From assembly GCA_946414595.1 (NCBI GenBank), contig CAMKPE010000001.1:62001-126000 (forward strand): DNA of 64,000 bases. Direction: 5' to 3'. This DNA comes from an uncultured Clostridium sp. GTDB taxonomy: Bacteria > Bacillota_I > Bacilli_A > RF39 > UBA660. The notes under the pieces are model-generated. The model was not told the origin of the DNA. It did no database searches and worked only from the letters and a program-made list of their open reading frames with translations. The translations under genes and the position numbers were made by a program. The number at the start of each line of letters is the position of its first letter. Within the stretch, counting starts at the first letter, position 1. This document shows positions 51,082 to 64,000 of this stretch, one piece after another.

Positions 51082-52632
51082 ATGGATATTTTGATCTCTA
51101 TTTTGCTAGTTGTAGTTGGAGTGTCAGTAGGGTTTTTAGTTAATTACCTTATTAACAATAATAAGGTAAATAATTCTAATAAAAAAGCTGAAGAAATAAT
51201 TGATAAAGCTAAAAAGGATGCTGAAAAAGCTAAGAGAGATTCGCTTTTTGAAGCAAAAGAAGAAATTCACAAATTAAAAATCGAAGCAGATAAAGAAGTT
51301 AAAGAGAAAAAAGAAGAACTTAAAGTTTCTGAAGATAGACTAATTCAAAGAGAAAATAACATGGATAAACGTGATGAGTTATTCCAAAAAAGAGAATTAG
51401 CATTAGAAGAAAAAGAAAAATCAATTATAGAATCTCAAAAAGATATCCAATTAGAATATGCAAAAATAGATGAACTAAAACAACAAGAACTTGATCAACT
51501 TTCTAAGATTTCTAAGTTATCTAAAGATGAAGCTAAGAAACTTGTTATGAAGAAAGTTGAAGAAACAATGTCAAAAGAAATATCTGAGTATATTAAAGAG
51601 CGTGAAGATGAAGCTAAACTTGAAGCTGATAAGAAAGCTAAAAATTTAATTGCTATTTCTATGCAAAGATATGCTGCAGACATTGCAAATGAACAAACTG
51701 TAACAGTTGTAAATCTTCCTGATGATGAAATGAAGGGAAGAATAATTGGTAGGGAAGGAAGAAACATAAGAACTATTGAAGCTATCACTGGTGTAGATTT
51801 AATTATTGATGATACACCTGAAGCAGTAGTACTTTCATCATTCGACCCACTAAGAAGAGAAATCGCAAGAGTAACACTTGAAACATTAATTAAAGATGGA
51901 AGAATCCATCCAACAAGAATTGAAGAATTATATGATAAAGTATGCAAAGAAATGAAACAAAAGATTGTTGAATTTGGTAATGATGCTTTATTTGAATTAG
52001 GACTTACTAAAGTAGATCCTGAATTAATCGAAATAATTGGTAAATTGCATTTTAGAACAAGTTATGGACAAAATGCATTACAACATTCAATTGAAGTTGC
52101 ACATTTATCTGGATTACTTGCTAGTGAATTTGGAGAAAACGTACAACTTGCTAAAAGAGCTGGATTACTTCACGACATTGGAAAAGCAATTGACCATGAA
52201 GTTGAAGGAAGCCACGTTGAAATTGGTGTTGATATAGCAAAAAGATTCCATGAAAATGATGTAGTAGTTAATTCAATTGCATCACACCATGGTGATACTG
52301 AAGCTAAGTCAACAATTGCTGTAATAGTAGCAATTGCTGATGCTTTATCTGCATCACGTCCAGGAGCAAGAAATGACTCATTAGAAAACTATATCAAGAG
52401 ACTTGAACAACTTGAAAATGTTGCAAATGATATGCCAGGAATTGACAAGACATTCGCAGTTCAAGCAGGAAGAGAATTAAGAGTTATAGTTAAACCTGAA
52501 GAAGTTGATGATTTAGGAGCTCATAAGATTGCAAGAGACGTTAAAGAGAAGATTGAATCTACAATGCAATATCCTGGAACTATTAAAGTTACAGTAGTAA
52601 GAGAAACAAGAGCACAAGAAGAAGCAAAATAA
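51082..52632 (+). CDS. rny: Ribonuclease Y
   Basis: 516 residues. N-terminal transmembrane segment (1-25), long charged coiled coil (about 30-200), KH domain ([31 protein letters not shown]), and HD domain with [13 protein letters not shown] and [21 protein letters not shown]. Membrane endoribonuclease starting mRNA decay. ATG follows GGAGGAAAG. Its terminator hairpin overlaps its stop. Confidence 0.97.
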
Positions 52633-52645
52633 TGCTTCTTTTTTT
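52621..52645 (+). terminator. Intrinsic terminator after rny
   Basis: GAAGCA, loop AAATAA, TGCTTC, then T; the stop codon is in the loop. Confidence 0.8.
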
Positions 52646-52685
52646 GCAAATATGTTATACTTTTATAAAGATAGGAGAGATGAAG

Positions 52686-53411
52686 ATGAAAAAAATATTA
52701 ATGGTATTATTGTTATCAATATTATTATTACCAATGGTTGTTAAAGCAGATGCATTTAAGCCAAGTATATACTATGACCATGATGTTAAAGTAGGGGATA
52801 CTGTAGACGAATATATATTATTCTATACTATGAATATAGGAGAATTTGAAGTAGATTATGATTCTCAGTATTTATCAATTACAAAAGATAATATTAAAAT
52901 TATATACGAAGGGAATAATTTGCTTAATAATAGTGAATTTGCTACTGTAGAAATAACAAATGGGAAAATCTTATTCAATATTAAAAAATTACCAGAACCA
53001 GAGCATGTTGTAGATGGTGATTTGGCAAGAGATTCAATTTATAATTCAATTGAATTGTCATTTATAGCATTAAAAGAAGGAGAAACTAAAATTACTACTC
53101 CATCAATGTATGAAAGAGAAAACTTTCCTTATTATGGAACATCTGCTAGTATAACAATAACTAAAAAAGACCAACCTGTAGAACCTCCAAAAGAACCTGA
53201 TGAAACGGAAGGGCAAGAAAAACCTGTAGATCCTCCAAAGGGGGATAAGAATAAAGACTTAGCATTCTATGGATCTTTACTTGTAAATGTTCTACAATTA
53301 ATAGCAATTATCATTTTAGTAGTTGTTGGTAAGAAAAGAAGTAAAGCAAAACAAGAGCCAAAGATTGAAGTAGTAGAAGAACCAAAAGAAGAAATAGAAA
53401 AAACAAAATAA
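52686..53411 (+). CDS. Membrane-anchored protein with cohesin-like domain
   Basis: 241 residues from ATG 52686 (8 bases after AGGAG). Signal peptide (KKILMVLLLSILLLPMVVKADA), then a beta-sandwich of about 140 residues that reads like a cohesin: KVGDTVDEYILFYTMNIGEFEVDYDSQYLSI early and SIELSFIALKEGETKITT late, the typical positions of a cohesin's first and last strands. A Pro/Glu linker (PVEPPKEPDETEGQEKPVDP) leads to a transmembrane segment (about 200-222) and a basic cytoplasmic tail. The fold call is by pattern only. A second cohesin-like membrane protein (57544-59106) and a dockerin protein (59115-61358) are nearby. Confidence 0.6.
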   Translation: MKKILMVLLLSILLLPMVVKADAFKPSIYYDHDVKVGDTVDEYILFYTMNIGEFEVDYDSQYLSITKDNIKIIYEGNNLLNNSEFATVEITNGKILFNIKKLPEPEHVVDGDLARDSIYNSIELSFIALKEGETKITTPSMYERENFPYYGTSASITITKKDQPVEPPKEPDETEGQEKPVDPPKGDKNKDLAFYGSLLVNVLQLIAIIILVVVGKKRSKAKQEPKIEVVEEPKEEIEKTK

Positions 53412-55198: not shown

Positions 55199-55234
55199 AA
55201 GAAAAGAAAAGAAGTGAAATATTTATCACTTCTT
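55199..55234 (-). terminator. Terminator of the surface operon
   Basis: On the minus strand AAGAAGTGA, loop, TCACTTCTT, then T; overlaps the LCP gene's stop codon. Confidence 0.75.
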
Positions 55235-57519
55235 TATTCGCTTCCTCCACCAGAATCTTCGTTGTCACCAGGAGTCTCTCCACCTGGGTTTTCACCACCT
55301 GGATTTTCACCACCTGGGTTCTCTCCACCTGGGGTTTCACCACCCGGATTTTCACCACCCGGATTTTCACCACCTGGGTTCTCACCTGGATTTTCACCAC
55401 CTGGAGTTTCTCCTCCTGGATTACCTGTATTTGGTTCTTCTTCCTTTGGATTAGAATATGTTATTTCTAGTGTTAATCCACCATCTAGTATTTCTTTTAC
55501 TGTAGTTCCTTTAGCAATTGATTGTTTTACTATCTCATTCTTTGGTCTAGAAGAAGTAGTGTCATATGCTGGGTGATAATCAATCATATTTGAAAATCCA
55601 TTAACCCAAGTCTTGAAATAATCTACATCTTTACCTACAAAGTCTGGAACAATACATTTTTCGTTTTCTTCATCTACTAAGCAGTCAACTTTATCTGCAT
55701 TTGCAGAACCACCTTTTCTTGCGATCTTTAATATAATCTTACCATTAGGTATTAAATCAATTCTTTTTGATGCTGGATATTGTTGTTCTAATACAATGTT
55801 ATCTCCTTTATTAGATTCAGTATATTGTATTTCTGCAGTAAGACCATTACTCTTTAACCATTCTTGAGCTTTAGATAATGTCCATCCAGTCATATCAGGA
55901 AGTAGGGTATACTTCTTAGTATCGTAATATCCTTTTCCTACAACTTTTATTTGATAGTTCTCATTAATCTTATATGAGAATGTTTTAATTAAGTCTTGTT
56001 TCTTACCAGAAAGGTTATTCTTAATTGCTTTCTTAACTTCTGATAAACTTCTTTGATTTAAGATGTAATCCCAAAGTACTAAACCGCTTCTTTCATCATA
56101 AATCATTTGACCATCACCATCTAAGTATAGTTTTTCGATAGTAATTATTGAATCACTTGATGATGATAGTAATACATCTTTTCCTACGTTGTAGAAAGAG
56201 AAGATTGTTGATTCACTCATATTAGTATCAAAGTTCTTAGATATTACTGCTAAAATCTTCTCTAAGTCTCCAATACTACTAAAGTTCTTCATCTTATCTA
56301 ATATAGCTTGAATTACTTCTTGTTGATGTTCTGCTCTTACAAAGTCATTTCTAGTTCCTGTTGTCCATTCTTTGCTACAGTAGTTAGCGTTGCTCTTTCT
56401 GTTTCTTGCGTATGCTAATGCTTGTTCACCATTTAATGTTTGATGACCAGCATTTATATATACCATCTTTTTTCCAAATTCTCTTTTACTGTTTTGTTCA
56501 CATATCTTATAAGGCACATCTATTTCGATACCACCTAAAGCATTAACTAAATCAACAACACCAGTAAAGTTAATCTTCATATAGTAATCTATTTTTACAT
56601 CTAAGAAATTTTGTATTGTATTGATAACACATTTAGCTCCACCTGAAGCTGAGTGAGTTATTTTATTATCTACATTATTCATACATGTAATAGGTACATA
56701 ACTGTCTCTTGGAATACTTAACATAGTTGCATGCATTGTAGTTGGATTAAATGTAACTAATATTAATGAATCTCCATTAAATGAATCAGCATTTTGTAAT
56801 CCATTTACTGTTGAATCTATTCCTATTAATAATATAGTAATTGGTTCAGATACATCTTTAGAACTTCCACTTAATTGTACTTCTTCTTTTGTAACTTCTT
56901 TTTGAGAAGTATCTACTGCTACAACTTTTTCTCCAATATCTTCAAAGTTTTCATCTGTACTATATATATCTACAAAATTTGTTTGTAAGAATATATAACT
57001 TACTTTACCATCATATAGATCAAGTATCATCTTACGATAATCTTGATATTCAACTAATTCATTATTCTTATCTAATGAATATTTTTTAATTATATCATCT
57101 GCTAGATTATGTTCTTCTTCAGTATTAACACCAATCTTAGCATCTTTTAAAGTACTTAACTTAACATCTTTATTTTCTTTTAATGTTACTAAACTTATTG
57201 AATATACAACTTTCTTATTTAAGTTAGAGAAGTATGAATATATTCTATTAAGATTAAATCCTAAGAAAATAAATAGGATAGAGAAGAGTAGAAACACAAT
57301 AGATGCCACTATCTTTCCTTTCTTCTTTTTCTTCTTTTTAGAGAAGAATAATTTAACAAATACAAATATATCTATTATTAAGATTACTCCAATAACAAAA
57401 TATCTTATTCCTGTTTCTATTTTCTTAAACAATAATATTGATTGAATCAAGTATATGGATGCAATTATAAAAACAATTGCGAGTATACTGCTATATTGTA
57501 TTTTTGTTTTTTTCTTCAT
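55234..57519 (-). CDS. LytR-CpsA-Psr family protein with PASTA domains and Pro/Gly repeat tail
   Basis: 761 residues. Two or three N-terminal transmembrane segments and a linker lead to an LCP domain (about 225-405): ILLIGIDSTVNGLQNADSFNGDSLILVTFNP, LSIPRDSYVPITC, GGIEIDVPY, LNGEQALAYARNRKSNANYCSKEWTTGTRNDFVRAEHQQEVI. LCP enzymes attach teichoic acids or glycans to peptidoglycan. Two PASTA domains (about 540-615 and 630-700) follow, LPDMTGWTLSKAQEWLKSNGL and VPDFVGKDVDYFKTWVNG. The tail (to 761) is a PGGEN-type repeat. PASTA on LCP is unusual. Downstream gene of the operon with the dockerin and cohesin-like genes; GGAGGTATT precedes the ATG. Confidence 0.88.
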   Translation of the reverse strand: MKKKTKIQYSSILAIVFIIASIYLIQSILLFKKIETGIRYFVIGVILIIDIFVFVKLFFSKKKKKKKGKIVASIVFLLFSILFIFLGFNLNRIYSYFSNLNKKVVYSISLVTLKENKDVKLSTLKDAKIGVNTEEEHNLADDIIKKYSLDKNNELVEYQDYRKMILDLYDGKVSYIFLQTNFVDIYSTDENFEDIGEKVVAVDTSQKEVTKEEVQLSGSSKDVSEPITILLIGIDSTVNGLQNADSFNGDSLILVTFNPTTMHATMLSIPRDSYVPITCMNNVDNKITHSASGGAKCVINTIQNFLDVKIDYYMKINFTGVVDLVNALGGIEIDVPYKICEQNSKREFGKKMVYINAGHQTLNGEQALAYARNRKSNANYCSKEWTTGTRNDFVRAEHQQEVIQAILDKMKNFSSIGDLEKILAVISKNFDTNMSESTIFSFYNVGKDVLLSSSSDSIITIEKLYLDGDGQMIYDERSGLVLWDYILNQRSLSEVKKAIKNNLSGKKQDLIKTFSYKINENYQIKVVGKGYYDTKKYTLLPDMTGWTLSKAQEWLKSNGLTAEIQYTESNKGDNIVLEQQYPASKRIDLIPNGKIILKIARKGGSANADKVDCLVDEENEKCIVPDFVGKDVDYFKTWVNGFSNMIDYHPAYDTTSSRPKNEIVKQSIAKGTTVKEILDGGLTLEITYSNPKEEEPNTGNPGGETPGGENPGENPGGENPGGENPGGETPGGENPGGENPGGENPGGETPGDNEDSGGGSE
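55266..55427 (-). repeat. Coding 15-base repeats (PGGEN type)
   Basis: About ten units of a 15-base repeat encode Pro-Gly-Gly-Glu-Asn/Thr in the tail of the LCP-PASTA protein. Copies differ at wobble bases. Confidence 0.8.
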
Positions 57520-57543: not shown

Positions 57544-59106
57544 TTATTTCTTTTTCTTTTTTGAACTATTTGAAATATCTTCTTTTATTTTATCATCTTT
57601 TTCAATAAAATGCTCTAATTCTTCACCAAAAGATTCATTTTTTTTCTTTTTTGTAGTTTTTTTCTTCTTTTCTTTGATTTCAACTTCTTTGATATTTTCT
57701 ATCTTTTCAGTCTTATCTTCTTTTATTTCATCTTCTTCAATAAAAGCATCTTGTATAGAAGGTTCTTGTTTTTCTTCTTCTTTAACTTCTTCTATATCTT
57801 CTTTTTCAGCCTTTTCTTTCTTTTTCTTTTTAGGTTTTTTGATACTGCTTATTAATAATACTATATAAGTAATTATTAGTAGGGCACCTAAACCAATTAT
57901 TACATATGTATATTTATTATTTTTACTTTCTAGTGAATCTATTTTATCAAGCAATTCTTGATTGAATAATTGAATAGTATTTTCTTTTTTATTATATTGA
58001 TATAAGTTTTCTTCACCACTAGCTATGTTAATACCATTTATTAGATAGAAATCATTATTCGTTTCACTTTTATATGCAACTAATTCTTCTTCCCCAATTT
58101 TAATTGTTGATTTAACATAACCTTCAGGAATATTTTTTAGTGCAGTTGTAGTTATTATTATTGAATCAAATGAATATTCTTTATATATTGTATAATTATC
58201 ATTTTTATATTGATATAATTCAATATTTCCTTCACTATCTTTTAATCCAACTAGGGTAGTGTCAGTAGCCTTGTTGAAGAATGCTGGAATATCTTCTTCT
58301 TCGCCAATTTTAATTGCTGTTTCATCAAAGTTAGTATTTGGCTTCTCAATTAATTCTTTCTTTCTTACAACGTTATATTCTTCATCATCTACTTTTACTA
58401 CTATTGGTGTAAGTTCTTTAACTGTTACATCAATTGTATAAGTTTTACTGCTTCCGTTTTGTGCAGTAACTTTAATGTTTATTTTATTAACACCTTCAAC
58501 TAAATCATGTTTACCAAGACCTTCAACTGATGAAGTACCATCTTCTTTAGATCCAGATATGTTAATTGATCTAACATCATTTTCTAATATTAATGCATAT
58601 TGAGTTGTATTTTTATTAAATGCTGGTGAAATATTAAATCCATCAACTTTTAAACTTGATAAGTTATTATTCTTACTATAACTAGCTTCAAGTTGAGCTT
58701 GTGTAATTATTGTTACATTCTTTGAAGTAGTACCTGTATATGAGAAATTGTTGAAGTTCCAATCGATTGCTTCGTATATATTGAAATTGAAATATGCAGT
58801 ACCACTTGATTTAGCTCTAAACTTAAAAGTATAAGTTACAGATTTCTTTGATCCATCAAATACAGGTGCTGCATTTAATGTTCCACTTTCTAGTGATAAT
58901 TTATTAGTATCATAAGTAACACCATATCTTAAACTTCCAAGTAGTTCTGATGAGGATACTGTTACTGTATAAGTAATAGTATTTCCTACAACAACTCTTG
59001 ATGATGATGCACTAATTGATACTTTTAATGATGCAGCATGTACTTTTAATACTACTGCAGCAATTATAATTGCTATTATATAAACTGTTCTTCTTATGTA
59101 TTTCAT
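57544..59106 (-). CDS. Membrane-anchored cohesin-like / cadherin-like protein
   Basis: 520 residues. Signal peptide (RRTVYIIAIIIAAVVLKVHA), cohesin-like module about 26-140 (SSSRVVVGNTITYTVTVSS, GVTYDTNKLSLESGTL, YTFKFRAKSSGTAYFNF), a cadherin-like beta-sandwich about 155-235 (LSSLKVDGFNISPAFNKNTTQYAL ... VTAQNGSSKTYTIDVTV), a linker domain, one transmembrane segment about 395-417 (YVIIGLGALLIITYIVLLI) and a Lys/Glu-rich cytoplasmic tail. It follows the dockerin gene with 8 bases between them, and its ribosome-binding site AGGTGG overlaps that gene's stop; both carry the same cadherin-like module. This suggests it is a membrane receptor for the dockerin. Confidence 0.75.
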   Translation of the reverse strand: MKYIRRTVYIIAIIIAAVVLKVHAASLKVSISASSSRVVVGNTITYTVTVSSSELLGSLRYGVTYDTNKLSLESGTLNAAPVFDGSKKSVTYTFKFRAKSSGTAYFNFNIYEAIDWNFNNFSYTGTTSKNVTIITQAQLEASYSKNNNLSSLKVDGFNISPAFNKNTTQYALILENDVRSINISGSKEDGTSSVEGLGKHDLVEGVNKINIKVTAQNGSSKTYTIDVTVKELTPIVVKVDDEEYNVVRKKELIEKPNTNFDETAIKIGEEEDIPAFFNKATDTTLVGLKDSEGNIELYQYKNDNYTIYKEYSFDSIIITTTALKNIPEGYVKSTIKIGEEELVAYKSETNNDFYLINGINIASGEENLYQYNKKENTIQLFNQELLDKIDSLESKNNKYTYVIIGLGALLIITYIVLLISSIKKPKKKKKEKAEKEDIEEVKEEEKQEPSIQDAFIEEDEIKEDKTEKIENIKEVEIKEKKKKTTKKKKNESFGEELEHFIEKDDKIKEDISNSSKKKKK

Positions 59107-59114
59107 ATAACCAC

Positions 59115-61358
59115 CTATCCCTGACTAATATTAGCTGCACCTAATAATTGTTTTTGAATTAATAATATATCTACTACTGTTATTTTATTATCTTTATTTG
59201 TATCAGCAGCAGTAAGGAAGCATCCGGTTAATTTAGTAAATCCTAATATATGCTTTTGAACTACTAATAGGTCTGCAACTGTTATTGTTCCAGTTCCATC
59301 AATATCACCATATATTACTATTTCAACTGTTTTAGTATTTCCACCTTCTGAAATAACTACTTTATCACCAGTAACAACTGTACCACTTGTTTTGGGTTTT
59401 CCATTCTTATCAGTGATATTAATTGATACTGTATTATAAGTCTTAGTCAAATTATTAATTATTGTATTAACACTTGTTCCAAATGTAACCTTAGATAAAT
59501 ATTTATCTGTGTAATTATATCCTGATGACTTTAATACGTTATTTAAATCAACAGTAGGTTGTGTATTGGTATTAGTGTTGTTGTTATTGTTATTATTTGT
59601 ATTGTTTGTATTAGTGTTAGTATTAGTATTTGAATTTGTATTAGTGTTATTATTTGTATTCGTATTAGTATTAGTATTAGTATTTGTGTTAGTGTTAGTG
59701 TTTGTATTTGTGTTTGTATTTGTGTTTGTATTTGTGTTTGTATTTGTATTTGTATTTGTATTGTCATTATTACCTGTATTTTGATCTACTGGTTTAGCAG
59801 CTCTTTTAACTGTTACTGTATAAGTTCTTACTGAACCATTTTGTGCAGTTACTTCTACTTTAAATACTGTTGTATCACCAGTAAGATTTAAAGTACCAAC
59901 TCCTTTAATAGTAGCTTTACTATTTACTTTTTCAGCTTCAATCTTAACTGTTTCAGAGTAAGGTACATTTACTGTATAACTTAATGTATCACTATTAAAG
60001 TTTGTAACAAGTGATCCATTTACTTTTAATGATTTTAGCCAGTTATTTGGATTCCCAAGTTTTGGAAGTGTAGTTGATTCTGGCATATTATCATATATTG
60101 GAATTGCAAATACAAAATCTTTTTCAATTAATCCAAAATTCTTATAAGAATTATAAGTAGATATTGCTGGAGAAACTAGGGCAGATACATTAGTTGTATA
60201 TTGGTGCCATGTTCCTTTTGTTGCAGTAGGAGCTAAGTTAAACTTTTGGAAATATGAAGTATATTGTCCACAGTTAACATAGTTTCTAGAAATAATTGTT
60301 GAACCATTAACAATTGATTTCTCTTGTGTATTCCATCCTGCATTCTTAGCATATCTTAATGATTGTAATTTAGGATTGTTTGATGATGATGCTCCAATAT
60401 TGAAGAAGTTATAATAATTTGAATAATCAACTCCTTCAATAACTCCAGCTTTTCCGTTTGTACATATATTAGTATTTGACGTACCAACTTCTTGTCTTGA
60501 TAAAGCTGCTAAATATATTGGTGAAACATTTGATGCTTCAGCACCTTTAATAAACAAGTTAGCAAATTGCTTTAAGAAATCTGAAGATAGAGTATATTTA
60601 ACTACATCCAAAGTTTGATAACTAGGGTAGTAGAATAATTCTTCAAACATAAATATTTGTTTTTCATCTAAGAAGTTTCTTGGATCTAAGTAATAAGCAA
60701 TTGTTTGTCTATTAGCTTGGAACCAATATGTTCCATCGTGTGCAATAAACTTATCAGTATTGTGATTATAATCAGCAGTAGCAGTTGATAAATATCCTTC
60801 ATATCCGTTATTAGCATATGTCGGATTAACATTTAACAAACTTGTTCCTGATTGATCTTGAGAGTTTAGTGCAGAATTCCAGTTATAATTAGATTTGACT
60901 CCTTTAAAAATCCATGATGGATGTGTTTTATGAAGTGCTCTTAATTTAACTTTATATGATTCAGGGAATTTCTGACTAGTTAAGTATTCTTCAAATTCTT
61001 GATCAGTCATATGAGCCATTCTTTCACCTGTTGGTGTAAGTGGAGTTTCAACTTTTTCCTTTGTTTCAATATCAGCAATATAAGTTGAACATACATAACC
61101 TTGAATGTTACTTGAATTGATTATTTTAACCCATTTGTCACTACAACCATTACCACTTGTAGAATACTCAAGTATAGTAACGTAAGTATTATAAATAGCA
61201 GTACCAACTTTGTTGTATCCAGTTCCTGGACCACTTCTAATATTTAGGTTGTTAGTGGCTGCAACTCTACCTGTTGTAATCTCTTCAGCACTAGCATAAG
61301 TAATAGGTACTAGCAATAAAGTGAAAATCAATAGGTAAAATAAAGCTTTCCTCTTCAT
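59115..61358 (-). CDS. Glucosaminidase with SH3, cadherin-like and dockerin domains
   Basis: 747 residues. Signal peptide (1-25); bacterial SH3 (about 28-95; NNLNIRSGPGTGYNKVG); glucosaminidase-type hydrolase (about 110-430) with LSRQEVGTSNTNIC and WFQANRQTIAYYLDPRNFL; cadherin-like domain (about 440-530); an Asn/Thr repeat linker (about 530-605); a small beta domain; and a C-terminal dockerin (about 684-747) with both calcium loops intact: DIDGTGTITVAD and DTNKDNKITVVD. It should cut peptidoglycan glycan strands and be docked to a cohesin. First gene of the minus-strand operon; the cohesin-like gene follows with 8 bases between. AGGTGGATT precedes the ATG. Confidence 0.88.
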   Translation of the reverse strand: MKRKALFYLLIFTLLLVPITYASAEEITTGRVAATNNLNIRSGPGTGYNKVGTAIYNTYVTILEYSTSGNGCSDKWVKIINSSNIQGYVCSTYIADIETKEKVETPLTPTGERMAHMTDQEFEEYLTSQKFPESYKVKLRALHKTHPSWIFKGVKSNYNWNSALNSQDQSGTSLLNVNPTYANNGYEGYLSTATADYNHNTDKFIAHDGTYWFQANRQTIAYYLDPRNFLDEKQIFMFEELFYYPSYQTLDVVKYTLSSDFLKQFANLFIKGAEASNVSPIYLAALSRQEVGTSNTNICTNGKAGVIEGVDYSNYYNFFNIGASSSNNPKLQSLRYAKNAGWNTQEKSIVNGSTIISRNYVNCGQYTSYFQKFNLAPTATKGTWHQYTTNVSALVSPAISTYNSYKNFGLIEKDFVFAIPIYDNMPESTTLPKLGNPNNWLKSLKVNGSLVTNFNSDTLSYTVNVPYSETVKIEAEKVNSKATIKGVGTLNLTGDTTVFKVEVTAQNGSVRTYTVTVKRAAKPVDQNTGNNDNTNTNTNTNTNTNTNTNTNTNTNTNTNTNTNTNTNTNNNTNTNSNTNTNTNTNNTNNNNNNNTNTNTQPTVDLNNVLKSSGYNYTDKYLSKVTFGTSVNTIINNLTKTYNTVSINITDKNGKPKTSGTVVTGDKVVISEGGNTKTVEIVIYGDIDGTGTITVADLLVVQKHILGFTKLTGCFLTAADTNKDNKITVVDILLIQKQLLGAANISQG
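59118..59309 (-). other. Dockerin domain coding region
   Basis: Two 12-residue calcium loops with D/N at positions 1, 3 and 12, spaced by helices (DLLVVQKHILGF, DILLIQKQLLG), at the C-terminus of the glucosaminidase. Confidence 0.85.
59540..59775 (-). repeat. Coding hexanucleotide tandem repeat (Asn-Thr linker)
   Basis: Long run of imperfect 6-base units encoding Asn-Thr. On the plus strand 59701-59760 reads as exactly ten TTTGTA/TTTGTG units. The 6-base unit keeps the frame, so slippage would change linker length, not gene expression. Confidence 0.9.
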
Positions 61359-61429
61359 AATCCACCTCCATTCTACTTAACAAAATTATACAATAAATTA
61401 CGCTTAATTGCCACTTTATTATACAAAAA

Positions 61430-61456: not shown

Positions 61457-61566
61457 GAAAAAAGCCATATTGAATAAAAATCAAAATGATTATATAGTAA
61501 TTATAGTAATAATAATTAACAAAATTATGTTATTATATAAAGCTAAGAAAGAAGGTGAGTTCTATT

Positions 61567-64000
61567 ATGAAAAAGTTATTAACAATGTTGTTATTAATTC
61601 TTTTTATTACTCCAATAAGTGCTAATGCATTAGGAAAAGAACCACTTTCTTTTTATAATTATGAAAATGATTATGAACTTTATTATGGATATCCAATTGC
61701 AAATGGTAATGAAGAATACGAATATAATAAAATAATTGAATTTCAAGATTACTTATTTATGGCTAGAAGAAGTAATGTATTCTATCAAAATCTTTCTAGG
61801 TATAAAGACGTAAGAAAGATAGTTGTTTTCTTAAATAAAAATAGATCACAAGATGCTACTATTACTCTAATCTATACAACAGATAAAGTTAATAAAGTAT
61901 CTAAAACTGTATCAAAAGATGATGAATATGTAATTGTAGATATTCCTACAAGTACGTTTAGAGATTTAAAAATTAAATTTAAAAGTAAAAATATATATGT
62001 TCCAATCCAAATTAAAGGAGTAGAGTTGTTAACTAAAAATGGAAATATATTAACTGATCAAGATGTAAGTGTTTATACTCTTTCATTAAATCATTACGAT
62101 AGAAAAACTTATGATAAAAATACTGAAGGAAAAGTAACATTAAATGGTGAGACAAAAAGTTTTAATATAACAGGAATAGATAAAAAGACACCAAGTGTTA
62201 AAATAAAAGCTTCTAAAAAAGATAGCAATGAAGAAGTTAAAAGTTCTAAATGGACAAATGAAGGACTTAATTTCTCTTTCTATGATTTAGAAAGTGGTTT
62301 TAGTGGTGCAACAATCTATTATTGCCAAGATGTTAATAATACTTGTATTCCAAGAACAGTTTATAGAAAAGAAATAACAAGTTATAACATTCTAAATGGA
62401 ACTTATTATATTAGATATCAAGTTGTAAGTAACTCAAGAGCAAAAAGTGAAATATATTCTTTTGAAGCAAATGTTGAAACAAAAACTCCTGAAGCCGAAA
62501 TAGAAGTGTTAAAAACAAAATCAAGACTATACATAAATAGCGATGAATGGTCTAGTGAAGATGTAATGTTTAGAGTAACTGAAACATCTTCAATGAAAGG
62601 AGTAACTGTATACTACTGTGAAGATCAAGATAATACTTGTACTCCAAATATAAAAGTAGAAGGTACTGAATTTATTGAGCAAGAAAGAGAAAATGGAACC
62701 TATTATATTCGTTATTATATGGTAAATAGATCTAATCTTAAATCAACTGTTAAATCATTTAAATTAAAAATAGATAAAGATATTCCAAAAGTAGATTTAA
62801 AAGTAATTAAAGATAATGAAGAACTTGAAAATAACTATGACTGGTTAGATAATTATTTATCTTATATTTTGATTGATAATTCAGAAGGTATAAGTGAAAG
62901 AAAAATAACTTATTGTAAAGATTTAAATAATATATGTATTCCAAATATTGAAATAAATAGCAATGAATTAATTGATGAATTTAACAATACTAATGGTAAA
63001 TATTATTTTAGATATAAAATAGAAAACGAATCAGGTTTAGAAAGTGAAATATATTCTTATGAAGCTAAAGTAGATGCAAAACCAACATCTGTTTACTTAA
63101 TTGCAAGAAATGATAAAGAATTAGTACAAACTGATTCATGGTCTAATAAAGGTCTTACATTCGAATTCTTAAAAAATGATGTTTATAGTAAATCAGATAT
63201 TTATTATTGTATTGATACAGAAAACGATTGTATTCCAGATACTCTAATAGAAGAAAACACAATAATCAAAGATTATGTAGATGCAAAAGGAATATACTAC
63301 ATAAGATATAAAACAATTAATGAAGCAAATGTTGAATCAGAAACATTCTCTTATACTGCTAAAGTAGATGAAGAAATACCTGATGTTGATATTGAAGTAT
63401 CAAATGGTGAAAAAGTATTAAATGATACATGGCAAAGTAGCAAAGTATCATTCAAATTTGTTACTAAAAATGTTGGAGCAAGTAATACTAAAATCTATTA
63501 TTGTATAGATGAAAATAACACATGTACTCCAGATATAAAAATAGAAAATGAAAAAGAAGTATCAAGTGATAAAGAAGGTATTTATTACATTAGGTACTAT
63601 ATAGAAAATGATTTAAATGTTAAATCTAATATAAAAACATTTATTGTTAAAATTGATTCAGTAAAACCAATATGTATGATTACAAAAAGTACCAACGAAT
63701 GGACAAATCAAAATATTACTTTAACTATTAATACTGTTTATAGTGGAATAAGTAATGTATCTTCATATTCTTGGGATGGCATTAATTTTAATAACAATAG
63801 TACAAAAGAAATAAGCGAAAACGGTCATATTGATGGATATGTTAAAAATAGTGCTGGAGTAGTATCAAAATGTTCTATAGAAGTAGAAAATATTGATAAA
63901 GAAAAACCATCATGTGAGTTAACTGCAATAGGTACAAATAATGATGATACTTATGTAGATGAAGTAACAATTAAGTTTGCTAAAGTTAATGATAACTATG
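61567..64000 (+). CDS. Large exported repeat protein with Cys pairs, 3' truncated
   Basis: The frame is open from ATG 61567 (AAGGTGAGT upstream) to the window end, over 810 residues. A signal peptide (KKLLTMLLLILFITPISANA) begins the protein. After about 180 residues there are five Ig-like repeats of about 95-100 residues, each with YYC-x-D-x2-N-x-C-x-P (YYCQDVNNTCIP, YYCEDQDNTCTP, TYCKDLNNICIP, YYCIDTENDCIP, YYCIDENNTCTP), a conserved Trp early and GxYYIRY. Then come modules PICMITKSTNEW and PSCELTAIGTNN like those in the pseudopilin (33090-35741). Likely a surface or matrix protein; C-terminus and anchor are unknown. Confidence 0.85.
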   Translation, partial: MKKLLTMLLLILFITPISANALGKEPLSFYNYENDYELYYGYPIANGNEEYEYNKIIEFQDYLFMARRSNVFYQNLSRYKDVRKIVVFLNKNRSQDATITLIYTTDKVNKVSKTVSKDDEYVIVDIPTSTFRDLKIKFKSKNIYVPIQIKGVELLTKNGNILTDQDVSVYTLSLNHYDRKTYDKNTEGKVTLNGETKSFNITGIDKKTPSVKIKASKKDSNEEVKSSKWTNEGLNFSFYDLESGFSGATIYYCQDVNNTCIPRTVYRKEITSYNILNGTYYIRYQVVSNSRAKSEIYSFEANVETKTPEAEIEVLKTKSRLYINSDEWSSEDVMFRVTETSSMKGVTVYYCEDQDNTCTPNIKVEGTEFIEQERENGTYYIRYYMVNRSNLKSTVKSFKLKIDKDIPKVDLKVIKDNEELENNYDWLDNYLSYILIDNSEGISERKITYCKDLNNICIPNIEINSNELIDEFNNTNGKYYFRYKIENESGLESEIYSYEAKVDAKPTSVYLIARNDKELVQTDSWSNKGLTFEFLKNDVYSKSDIYYCIDTENDCIPDTLIEENTIIKDYVDAKGIYYIRYKTINEANVESETFSYTAKVDEEIPDVDIEVSNGEKVLNDTWQSSKVSFKFVTKNVGASNTKIYYCIDENNTCTPDIKIENEKEVSSDKEGIYYIRYYIENDLNVKSNIKTFIVKIDSVKPICMITKSTNEWTNQNITLTINTVYSGISNVSSYSWDGINFNNNSTKEISENGHIDGYVKNSAGVVSKCSIEVENIDKEKPSCELTAIGTNNDDTYVDEVTIKFAKVNDNY

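What the first reader, a model, noticed from the sequence alone, without database searches (positions are those of the whole stretch)
57544..61358. Dockerin-tagged wall hydrolase next to a membrane-anchored cohesin-like protein
The glucosaminidase at 59115-61358 ends in a dockerin with both calcium loops intact (seen). The gene after it, 8 bases downstream and with its ribosome-binding site over the first gene's stop, encodes a signal peptide, a cohesin-like module and a membrane anchor. Cohesin-dockerin pairs are known from cellulosomes and a few clostridial toxin/adhesin complexes. A minimal pair holding a peptidoglycan hydrolase on the cell's own membrane, with an LCP-PASTA protein in the same operon, looks like a distinct wall-remodelling or hydrolase-restraining device. 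The interaction itself is inferred.
Basis: partly seen in the sequence, partly recalled or inferred. Interest (0 to 1): 0.8.

Follow-up and report, generated by a model that had tools for sequence, protein, structure and literature searches.

The report
Wall-cutting enzyme docked to membrane anchor
Small-genome gut bacteria, and at least one Clostridium-class relative, carry a conserved gene pair: a secreted wall-cutting enzyme with a dockerin 'plug' and a membrane protein with a matching reduced cohesin 'socket'. They thus seem to use the cellulosome's coupling system, one enzyme to one anchor, to hold a wall hydrolase at their own cell membrane.

Summary
59115-61358(-) encodes signal peptide, SH3, SagB-like glucosaminidase (catalytic Glu290 kept), cadherin-like domain, Asn/Thr linker and type I dockerin, the only dockerin found in this genome. 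The next gene, 8 bp on, encodes signal peptide, cohesin-like module, cadherin-like domain, further ectodomain, one membrane helix and a Lys/Glu tail. The module's AlphaFold model matches solved cohesins (Z 12, rmsd 2.3-2.5 Å) but is a reduced cohesin of about 110 residues. The pair is ancient: 80 of 80 related loci have a dockerin gene directly upstream of the anchor, and it recurs in other Bacilli families and Vescimonas (Clostridia). All 48 family genomes with the anchor have a dockerin; 9 of 12 without it have none. The dockerin's cohesin-contacting positions are mirrored between its repeats and co-vary with the cohesin module (partial Mantel r 0.66) but not with the anchor's other domains (about 0). 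Co-folding gave no confident interface (pTM 0.58), so binding is strongly inferred, not shown. Best reading: dedicated, cargo-swappable tethering (GH73, GH25, M6 peptidase seen), probably for membrane-proximal wall remodelling like SagB-SpdC; restraint is not favoured. No prior description found in the searched library.

The parts
59115..61358 (-). Secreted SagB-like (GH73-type) glucosaminidase ending in a type I dockerin, 747 aa
61287..61358 (-). signal peptide of the hydrolase (residues 1-24); no other hydrophobic helix in the protein
   Evidence: hydropathy
61077..61250 (-). bacterial SH3_3 domain (residues 37-94)
   Evidence: Pfam 42.4 bits
60108..60767 (-). glucosaminidase catalytic domain (residues about 198-417), catalytic Glu290 at 60489-60491
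   Evidence: phmmer to 6fxo, 6u0o, 6fxp with the Glu aligned; residue number
59799..60062 (-). cadherin-like beta sandwich in the hydrolase, related to the one in the anchor
   Evidence: anchor profile hit at G000:C1:121799-122062; blastp in orthologues
59142..59312 (-). type I dockerin (residues 683-739): two F-hand repeats, DIDGTGTITVAD and DTNKDNKITVVD
   Evidence: Pfam; fold; repeat symmetry across the family
59111..59116 (-). AGGTGG ribosome-binding site overlapping the hydrolase stop codon
   Evidence: sequence
57544..59106 (-). Membrane-anchored cohesin-like protein, 520 aa
59032..59106 (-). signal peptide of the anchor (residues 1-25)
   Evidence: alignment
58699..59031 (-). reduced cohesin module (residues 26-136)
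   Evidence: profile hit 20.1 bits; relatives over the cut-off; AlphaFold and VIA match to 2jh2, 2vo8, 2w1n, 1g1k
58423..58662 (-). cadherin-like beta sandwich PF12733 (residues 149-228)
   Evidence: Pfam 29.2 bits; 40 of 40 relatives
57937..58410 (-). conserved third ectodomain region of unknown function (residues 233-390)
   Evidence: alignment; well-predicted beta structure
57844..57915 (-). single transmembrane helix (about residues 398-421), followed by a Lys/Glu-rich tail to residue 520
   Evidence: hydropathy
55234..57519 (-). LCP-PASTA protein, likely same transcription unit; an optional neighbour, not a core part
   Evidence: Pfam; directly next in 29 of 80 related loci
61385..61414 (-). 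promoter-like site upstream of the hydrolase (10 of 12 matches)
   Evidence: consensus scan only
55208..55235 (-). terminator-like hairpin just after the LCP-PASTA gene
   Evidence: consensus scan only

Best explanation
The two genes encode an enzyme and its dedicated dock. The glucosaminidase is exported with no membrane anchor of its own. Its C-terminal type I dockerin, in either of two equivalent orientations, plugs into the reduced cohesin at the tip of the co-translated single-pass membrane protein. This holds the hydrolase on the outer face of the cytoplasmic membrane, on a long Asn/Thr linker, where it can trim nascent or inner-wall glycan strands. It would thus do by a non-covalent plug what the S. 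aureus SagB-SpdC complex does by membrane helices. Shown here: architecture, conserved adjacency, co-occurrence, coupled loss, dockerin and cohesin-like folds, specific co-variation of the dockerin's contact residues with the cohesin module. Inferred: direct binding, calcium dependence, and the wall-remodelling role.
For: (1) In 80 of 80 related loci the anchor directly follows a gene ending in a dockerin, median gap 10 bp. (2) In the family, 48 of 48 genomes with the anchor have a dockerin, while 9 of 12 without it have none; Fisher p 1.5e-8, not phylogeny-corrected. (3) In G244, a single-contig relative, the anchor lacks the cohesin module and the genome has no dockerin. (4) The anchor module matches solved cohesins 2jh2, 2w1n and 2vo8 at Z 12, rmsd 2.3-2.5 over 110-113 residues, and 1g1k at rmsd 2.1 with 28% identity; the dockerin matches 8x39 at Z 12, rmsd 1.4. 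(5) The two dockerin repeats are mirrored at the positions known to contact cohesin (kappa 0.76-0.96 at 10, 11, 14, 17, 18; about 0-0.16 at 4, 6, 7, 8, 16, 19; contact positions from PMC4728124). (6) Those residues co-vary with the cohesin module after control for the other anchor domains (partial Mantel r 0.66; 0.42 in the most uniform subset), against 0.25 for other dockerin residues and about 0 for contact residues against the cadherin domain; 15.6% of contact-cohesin column pairs are in the top 2% of APC-corrected MI, against 1.4% and 0.1% for the other domains. (7) The other cohesin protein of this genus occurs in G010, which has no dockerin, so it is not the obligate partner. (8) Cargo differs between relatives: GH25 lysozyme in L196, M6 peptidase in L079. 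(9) The catalytic Glu is retained.
Against: The 220-residue co-fold of dockerin, linker and cohesin gave pTM 0.58, about what two undocked domains would give (the comparison value is my estimate); it was a single chain joined by a signal peptide, with only 20 paired rows and no positive control. The cohesin module is about 30 residues shorter than classical cohesins and below Pfam's cut-off in this protein; non-cohesin beta sandwiches score almost as high (Z 10-11). Dockerin loop 1 lacks an acidic ligand at position 5. Non-contact dockerin residues also co-vary weakly with the cohesin (r 0.25). No functional data exist for the wall role.
Confidence: 0.77

Rival explanations
1. The anchor restrains the hydrolase: docking sequesters or inhibits the glucosaminidase, and undocking (for example on calcium loss) releases an active autolysin.
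For: Single-pass anchor of an enzyme that could damage the cell's own wall, translated with it. Calcium-ligand loops make a calcium switch conceivable.
Against: The same anchor type goes with a GH25 lysozyme and an M6 peptidase, which an enzyme-specific inhibitor would not. A long Asn/Thr linker separates dockerin and catalytic domain, so docking need not block the active site. Co-variation is confined to the cohesin module.
Confidence: 0.12
2. The dockerin's partner is another cohesin in the cell, such as the C6 protein, and the neighbouring module is a mere spacer.
For: The C6 protein has a stronger Pfam cohesin match (32.2 bits) and is also membrane-anchored.
Against: The C6-type cohesin occurs in G010 without any dockerin, while the neighbour's presence tracks dockerins. 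The dockerin contact face co-varies with the neighbour's module. Coupled absence in G244.
Confidence: 0.07
3. The hydrolase and anchor work together but do not touch; both modules bind other things (wall sugars, host glycans) and are co-inherited for expression reasons.
For: Cohesin-like beta sandwiches resemble carbohydrate-binding and adhesion folds. The co-fold did not dock.
Against: Co-variation is specific to dockerin contact positions and the cohesin module and absent for the adjacent domains of the same protein; shared expression alone would not give this.
Confidence: 0.08
4. The pair is part of a nutritional cellulosome- or mucinolysome-like complex for foreign glycans.
For: Gut and rumen habitat. 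Cohesin-dockerin pairs usually serve such complexes.
Against: One dockerin and no multi-cohesin scaffoldin match in this genome. The enzyme is of a peptidoglycan hydrolase family. The anchor has one cohesin and no carbohydrate-binding module match.
Confidence: 0.04

Closest known systems
Type I cohesin-dockerin pairs of cellulosomes (C. thermocellum CipA with its enzymes; surface anchors such as SdbA)
   Same: Two-repeat type I dockerin with mirrored contact residues; cohesin-like beta-sandwich partner; enzyme on one protein, anchor on the other.
   Different: One enzyme and one cohesin per anchor, encoded side by side; no scaffoldin or carbohydrate-binding module; direct transmembrane anchor instead of SLH domains; cargo is a peptidoglycan hydrolase; cohesin shortened by about 30 residues.
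S. aureus SagB-SpdC peptidoglycan release complex (PMC10581084)
   Same: SagB-like GH73 glucosaminidase held at the membrane by a second protein; proposed role on nascent strands.
   Different: SpdC is a membrane protein of the CAAX-protease type and SagB is itself membrane-associated; here the link is a dockerin and a single-pass beta-domain protein. NCBIfam SagB scores 71 bits, far below its 425-bit cut-off.
Non-cellulosomal cohesin modules of Clostridium perfringens glycoside hydrolases (PDB 2jh2, 2vo8, 2w1n)
   Same: Closest solved folds to the anchor's module; use outside cellulosomes.
   Different: Those cohesins sit on secreted carbohydrate-active enzymes; here the cohesin sits on a membrane protein and the target is most likely the cell's own wall.
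Vescimonas fastidiosa KI236_RS09680/RS09685
   Same: Same pair, 10 bp apart: SH3, glucosaminidase, dockerin; then signal peptide, short cohesin-like module, cadherin-like domain, helix and charged tail.
   Different: Second dockerin repeat degenerate; annotated only by domain, with no role assigned.

Membership tests
Type I dockerin | two F-hand repeats matching Dockerin_1 | tested here: met
   39.8 bits against 22.9, full profile 1-57
Type I dockerin | calcium ligands in both loops | tested here: inconclusive
   loop 2 intact; loop 1 has Thr at position 5; most relatives have Asp there
Type I dockerin | dockerin fold | tested here: met
   8x39 Z 12.0, rmsd 1.4 over 68; 4uyp Z 11.2, on the close homologue L086
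Type I dockerin | internal symmetry of cohesin-contacting residues (dual binding mode) | tested here: met
   kappa 0.76-0.96 at positions 10, 11, 14, 17, 18 against about 0-0.16 at 4, 6, 7, 8, 16, 19
Type I dockerin | calcium-dependent binding to a cohesin | not testable with these tools
   needs an assay; co-variation supports it
Cohesin | cohesin beta-sandwich fold | tested here: met
   2jh2, 2w1n, 2vo8 Z 12, rmsd 2.3-2.5; 1g1k rmsd 2.1, 28% id; other beta sandwiches at Z 10-11
Cohesin | Pfam PF00963 gathering score | tested here: not met
   20.1 bits against 24.1 for this protein; several orthologues exceed it. Hence 'cohesin-like', not filed as a classical cohesin
Cohesin | classical nine-strand, about 140-residue module | tested here: not met
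   about 110 residues, eight strands in the model
Cohesin | binds a dockerin | not testable with these tools
   single-chain co-fold inconclusive, pTM 0.58
Cellulosome | scaffoldin with several cohesins and many dockerin enzymes | tested here: not met
   one dockerin; two cohesin-type matches on separate proteins plus one weak hit to an unrelated short ORF
GH73 glucosaminidase | catalytic Glu in the homologous position | tested here: met
   Glu290 aligned with the Glu of 6fxo, 6u0o and 6fxp
SagB-SpdC complex | SagB equivalog score, SpdC CAAX-type membrane partner | tested here: not met
   71 against 425 bits; partner has a single helix

The most novel reading that the evidence does not exclude
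Cohesin-dockerin docking has an old housekeeping use, older than or independent of cellulosomes: one-to-one, operon-encoded membrane tethering of cell-wall hydrolases, with swappable enzyme cargo, across many uncultured Bacilli and some Clostridia.
Probability: 0.4. Interest if true: 0.78.

Novelty: new variant of a known kind. Interest (0 to 1): 0.64.

Why it matters
It would move the cohesin-dockerin system from digestion of food polysaccharides to maintenance of the cell's own wall. It gives a clear two-protein system, with a close parallel in SagB-SpdC, for asking how bacteria keep a glucosaminidase at the membrane. It also offers over a hundred natural cognate pairs, with reduced cohesins and at least two dockerin specificity classes, for studying partner specificity. 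A cultured species, Vescimonas fastidiosa, carries the pair, so it can be tested.

Tried and rejected
Co-folding: two AlphaFold2 jobs used loci where reading through the hydrolase stop codon gives one natural chain (L086 as target). Foldseek alone ranked other beta sandwiches above cohesins; VIA-align put cohesins first. The sortase question: two sortases are present, so the dock does not replace a missing sortase system. The LCP-PASTA gene as a fixed operon member was rejected (29 of 80). The G000:C1:50610 cohesin hit belongs to a short ORF resembling TasA-type proteins, not a cohesin. Literature searches for dockerin with glucosaminidase, peptidoglycan hydrolase, cadherin-like or Mollicutes found no description of the pair; the library lacks most subscription journals, so this is not proof of novelty.
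Full report
What is there. The window carries, on the minus strand, a 747-residue secreted protein (59115-61358) followed after 8 bp by a 520-residue membrane protein (57544-59106) and, 24 bp later, by an LCP-PASTA protein (55234-57519). The first has a signal peptide, an SH3_3 domain, a glucosaminidase domain whose best relatives are the S. aureus autolysin and SagB structures, a cadherin-like domain, an Asn/Thr linker and a type I dockerin. Glu290 aligns with the conserved Glu of the solved enzymes. Apart from the signal peptide it has no hydrophobic segment, so nothing obvious in it but the SH3 domain and the dockerin would keep it on the cell. The second has a signal peptide, a cohesin-like module (26-136), a PF12733 cadherin-like domain, a conserved third ectodomain region, one helix and a Lys/Glu-rich tail. 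The ribosome-binding site AGGTGG overlaps the first gene's stop. A promoter-like site precedes the hydrolase and a terminator-like hairpin follows the LCP gene; these are consensus matches only.

Is the module a cohesin? By sequence it is borderline: 20.1 bits against a cut-off of 24.1, but orthologues in other species pass the cut-off, and 8 of 40 family members hit the Cohesin model on their own at E up to 0.1. The AlphaFold model of the close homologue L086 (the same locus as L037: 75% identical in this module, 79% in the dockerin) has pLDDT around 97 there. VIA-align places C. perfringens cohesins first (Z 12, rmsd 2.3-2.5 over 110-113 residues) and C. cellulolyticus 1g1k at rmsd 2.1 with 28% identity. 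Unrelated beta sandwiches reach Z 10-11, so fold alone is not decisive. The module is about 110 residues, some 30 shorter than classical cohesins. I call it a reduced, cohesin-like module. The dockerin part matches solved dockerins at Z 12, rmsd 1.4.

How conserved is the pair? A protein search of 97 genomes found the anchor throughout the home family of small-genome Bacilli. In 80 loci fetched from named metagenome-assembled genomes (rumen, gut and other sources, labelled mostly Bacilli, Mollicutes or Tenericutes), every anchor gene had a dockerin-ending gene directly upstream, median gap 10 bp. In two other Bacilli families six of seven anchors checked have the same arrangement. Vescimonas fastidiosa, a cultured Clostridia species, has it too. 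The enzyme is nearly always a glucosaminidase, but in L196 it is a GH25 lysozyme, and in L079 an anchor of this type is followed by a dockerin-bearing M6 metallopeptidase. In this genome the hydrolase holds the only detectable dockerin.

Do anchor and dockerin depend on each other? Across 60 genomes of the family, all 48 with the anchor have at least one dockerin; of 12 without it, nine have none and three have weak or unrelated ones (Fisher p 1.5e-8 without correction for relatedness). G244, a single-contig genome of another family, has an anchor whose signal peptide runs straight into the cadherin-like domain, with no cohesin module, and no dockerin match anywhere. A second membrane-anchored cohesin protein in this genus (G000:C6) is present in G010, which has no dockerin, so it does not depend on the dockerin; G010 is 87% complete.

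Does the dockerin contact the module? Type I dockerins contact cohesin through positions 11, 12, 18, 19, 22 and 23 of each repeat (PMC4728124; also 15 in R. flavefaciens, PMC5429695), which are 10, 11, 17, 18, 21, 22 and 14 in my numbering. Across 107 pairs the two repeats of one protein match each other at 10, 11, 14, 17 and 18 with chance-corrected agreement 0.76-0.96, but near zero at several calcium-loop and exposed positions. This mirror symmetry is the mark of dual binding. Distances at the contact positions track distances in the cohesin module after controlling for the two neighbouring anchor domains (partial Mantel r 0.66; 0.56 in long cohesins; 0.42 in the most uniform subset). Other dockerin residues give only 0.25, and contact positions show nothing with the cadherin domain. 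Column by column, 15.6% of contact-cohesin pairs lie in the top 2% of APC-corrected mutual information, against 1.4% and 0.1% for the other two anchor domains. In the restricted set the top pair is dockerin 14 with cohesin Gly57. By the YD motif, my own alignment places Gly57 next to the strand-3 contact residues of known cohesins, where R. flavefaciens dockerin position 15 meets Ala-38. All eight strongly shortened cohesins pair with Tyr-(Val/Ile)-Lys-Asn dockerins, which no long cohesin does. These tests reduce but do not fully remove the effect of shared ancestry.

What argues against. The direct test I could run, a single-chain co-fold made from a natural read-through of the stop codon in L086, gave confident domains but pTM 0.58, about what I estimate undocked domains would give. 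The construct was poor (signal peptide as linker, 20 paired rows, no positive control), so I treat it as inconclusive. Dockerin loop 1 has Thr at a calcium-ligand position.

Mechanism. The best-supported account is a dedicated dock. The exported hydrolase is captured by its partner's cohesin and held on the membrane's outer face, with the Asn/Thr linker letting the catalytic domain reach the inner wall. The swap of enzyme families in relatives fits tethering better than restraint. The nearest functional parallel is SagB-SpdC (PMC10581084), where a membrane protein positions a GH73 glucosaminidase on nascent strands. That parallel concerns what it may work like; the partner protein is unrelated. 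Binding, calcium dependence and wall role remain to be shown.

Verdict. It is a new variant of a known kind, and I found no earlier description in the searchable library.

Noticed in passing
L082:4002-5441 (G000:C6, own genome): A second membrane-anchored protein with an above-threshold cohesin, cadherin-like domains and a helix, next to a polysaccharide deacetylase-like gene; its relative occurs in G010, which has no dockerin, so its ligand is unknown.
   Followed up: partly
L079:3983-8105 and L080:3596-6218: Anchor of the same type followed by an M6 (immune inhibitor A-like) metallopeptidase; in L079 it ends in a dockerin.
   Followed up: partly
L196:2992-5889: Anchor preceded by a GH25 lysozyme with a dockerin instead of the glucosaminidase; the same genome (G176) also has the glucosaminidase version (L203).
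   Followed up: partly
L201:3878-4924 (G244): Anchor homologue that lacks the cohesin module, in a single-contig genome without any dockerin match.
   Followed up: yes
window 52632-53411 (+): Signal peptide, beta-rich domain and C-terminal helix, no Pfam family; looks like another small membrane-anchored beta-sandwich protein, just after the gene at 51082-52632.
   Followed up: no
window 61555-64000 (+), runs off the window: Large repetitive surface protein with weak Ig-like matches, divergently transcribed from the hydrolase.
   Followed up: no
window 57937-58410 (-): The anchor's third ectodomain region (residues 233-390) is highly conserved, looks like two repeats of about 75 residues and has no named family; its role is open.
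   Followed up: no
G014:C4:102723-103238: Three identical-scoring dockerins in tandem in one ORF, in a genome without a full-length anchor.
   Followed up: no
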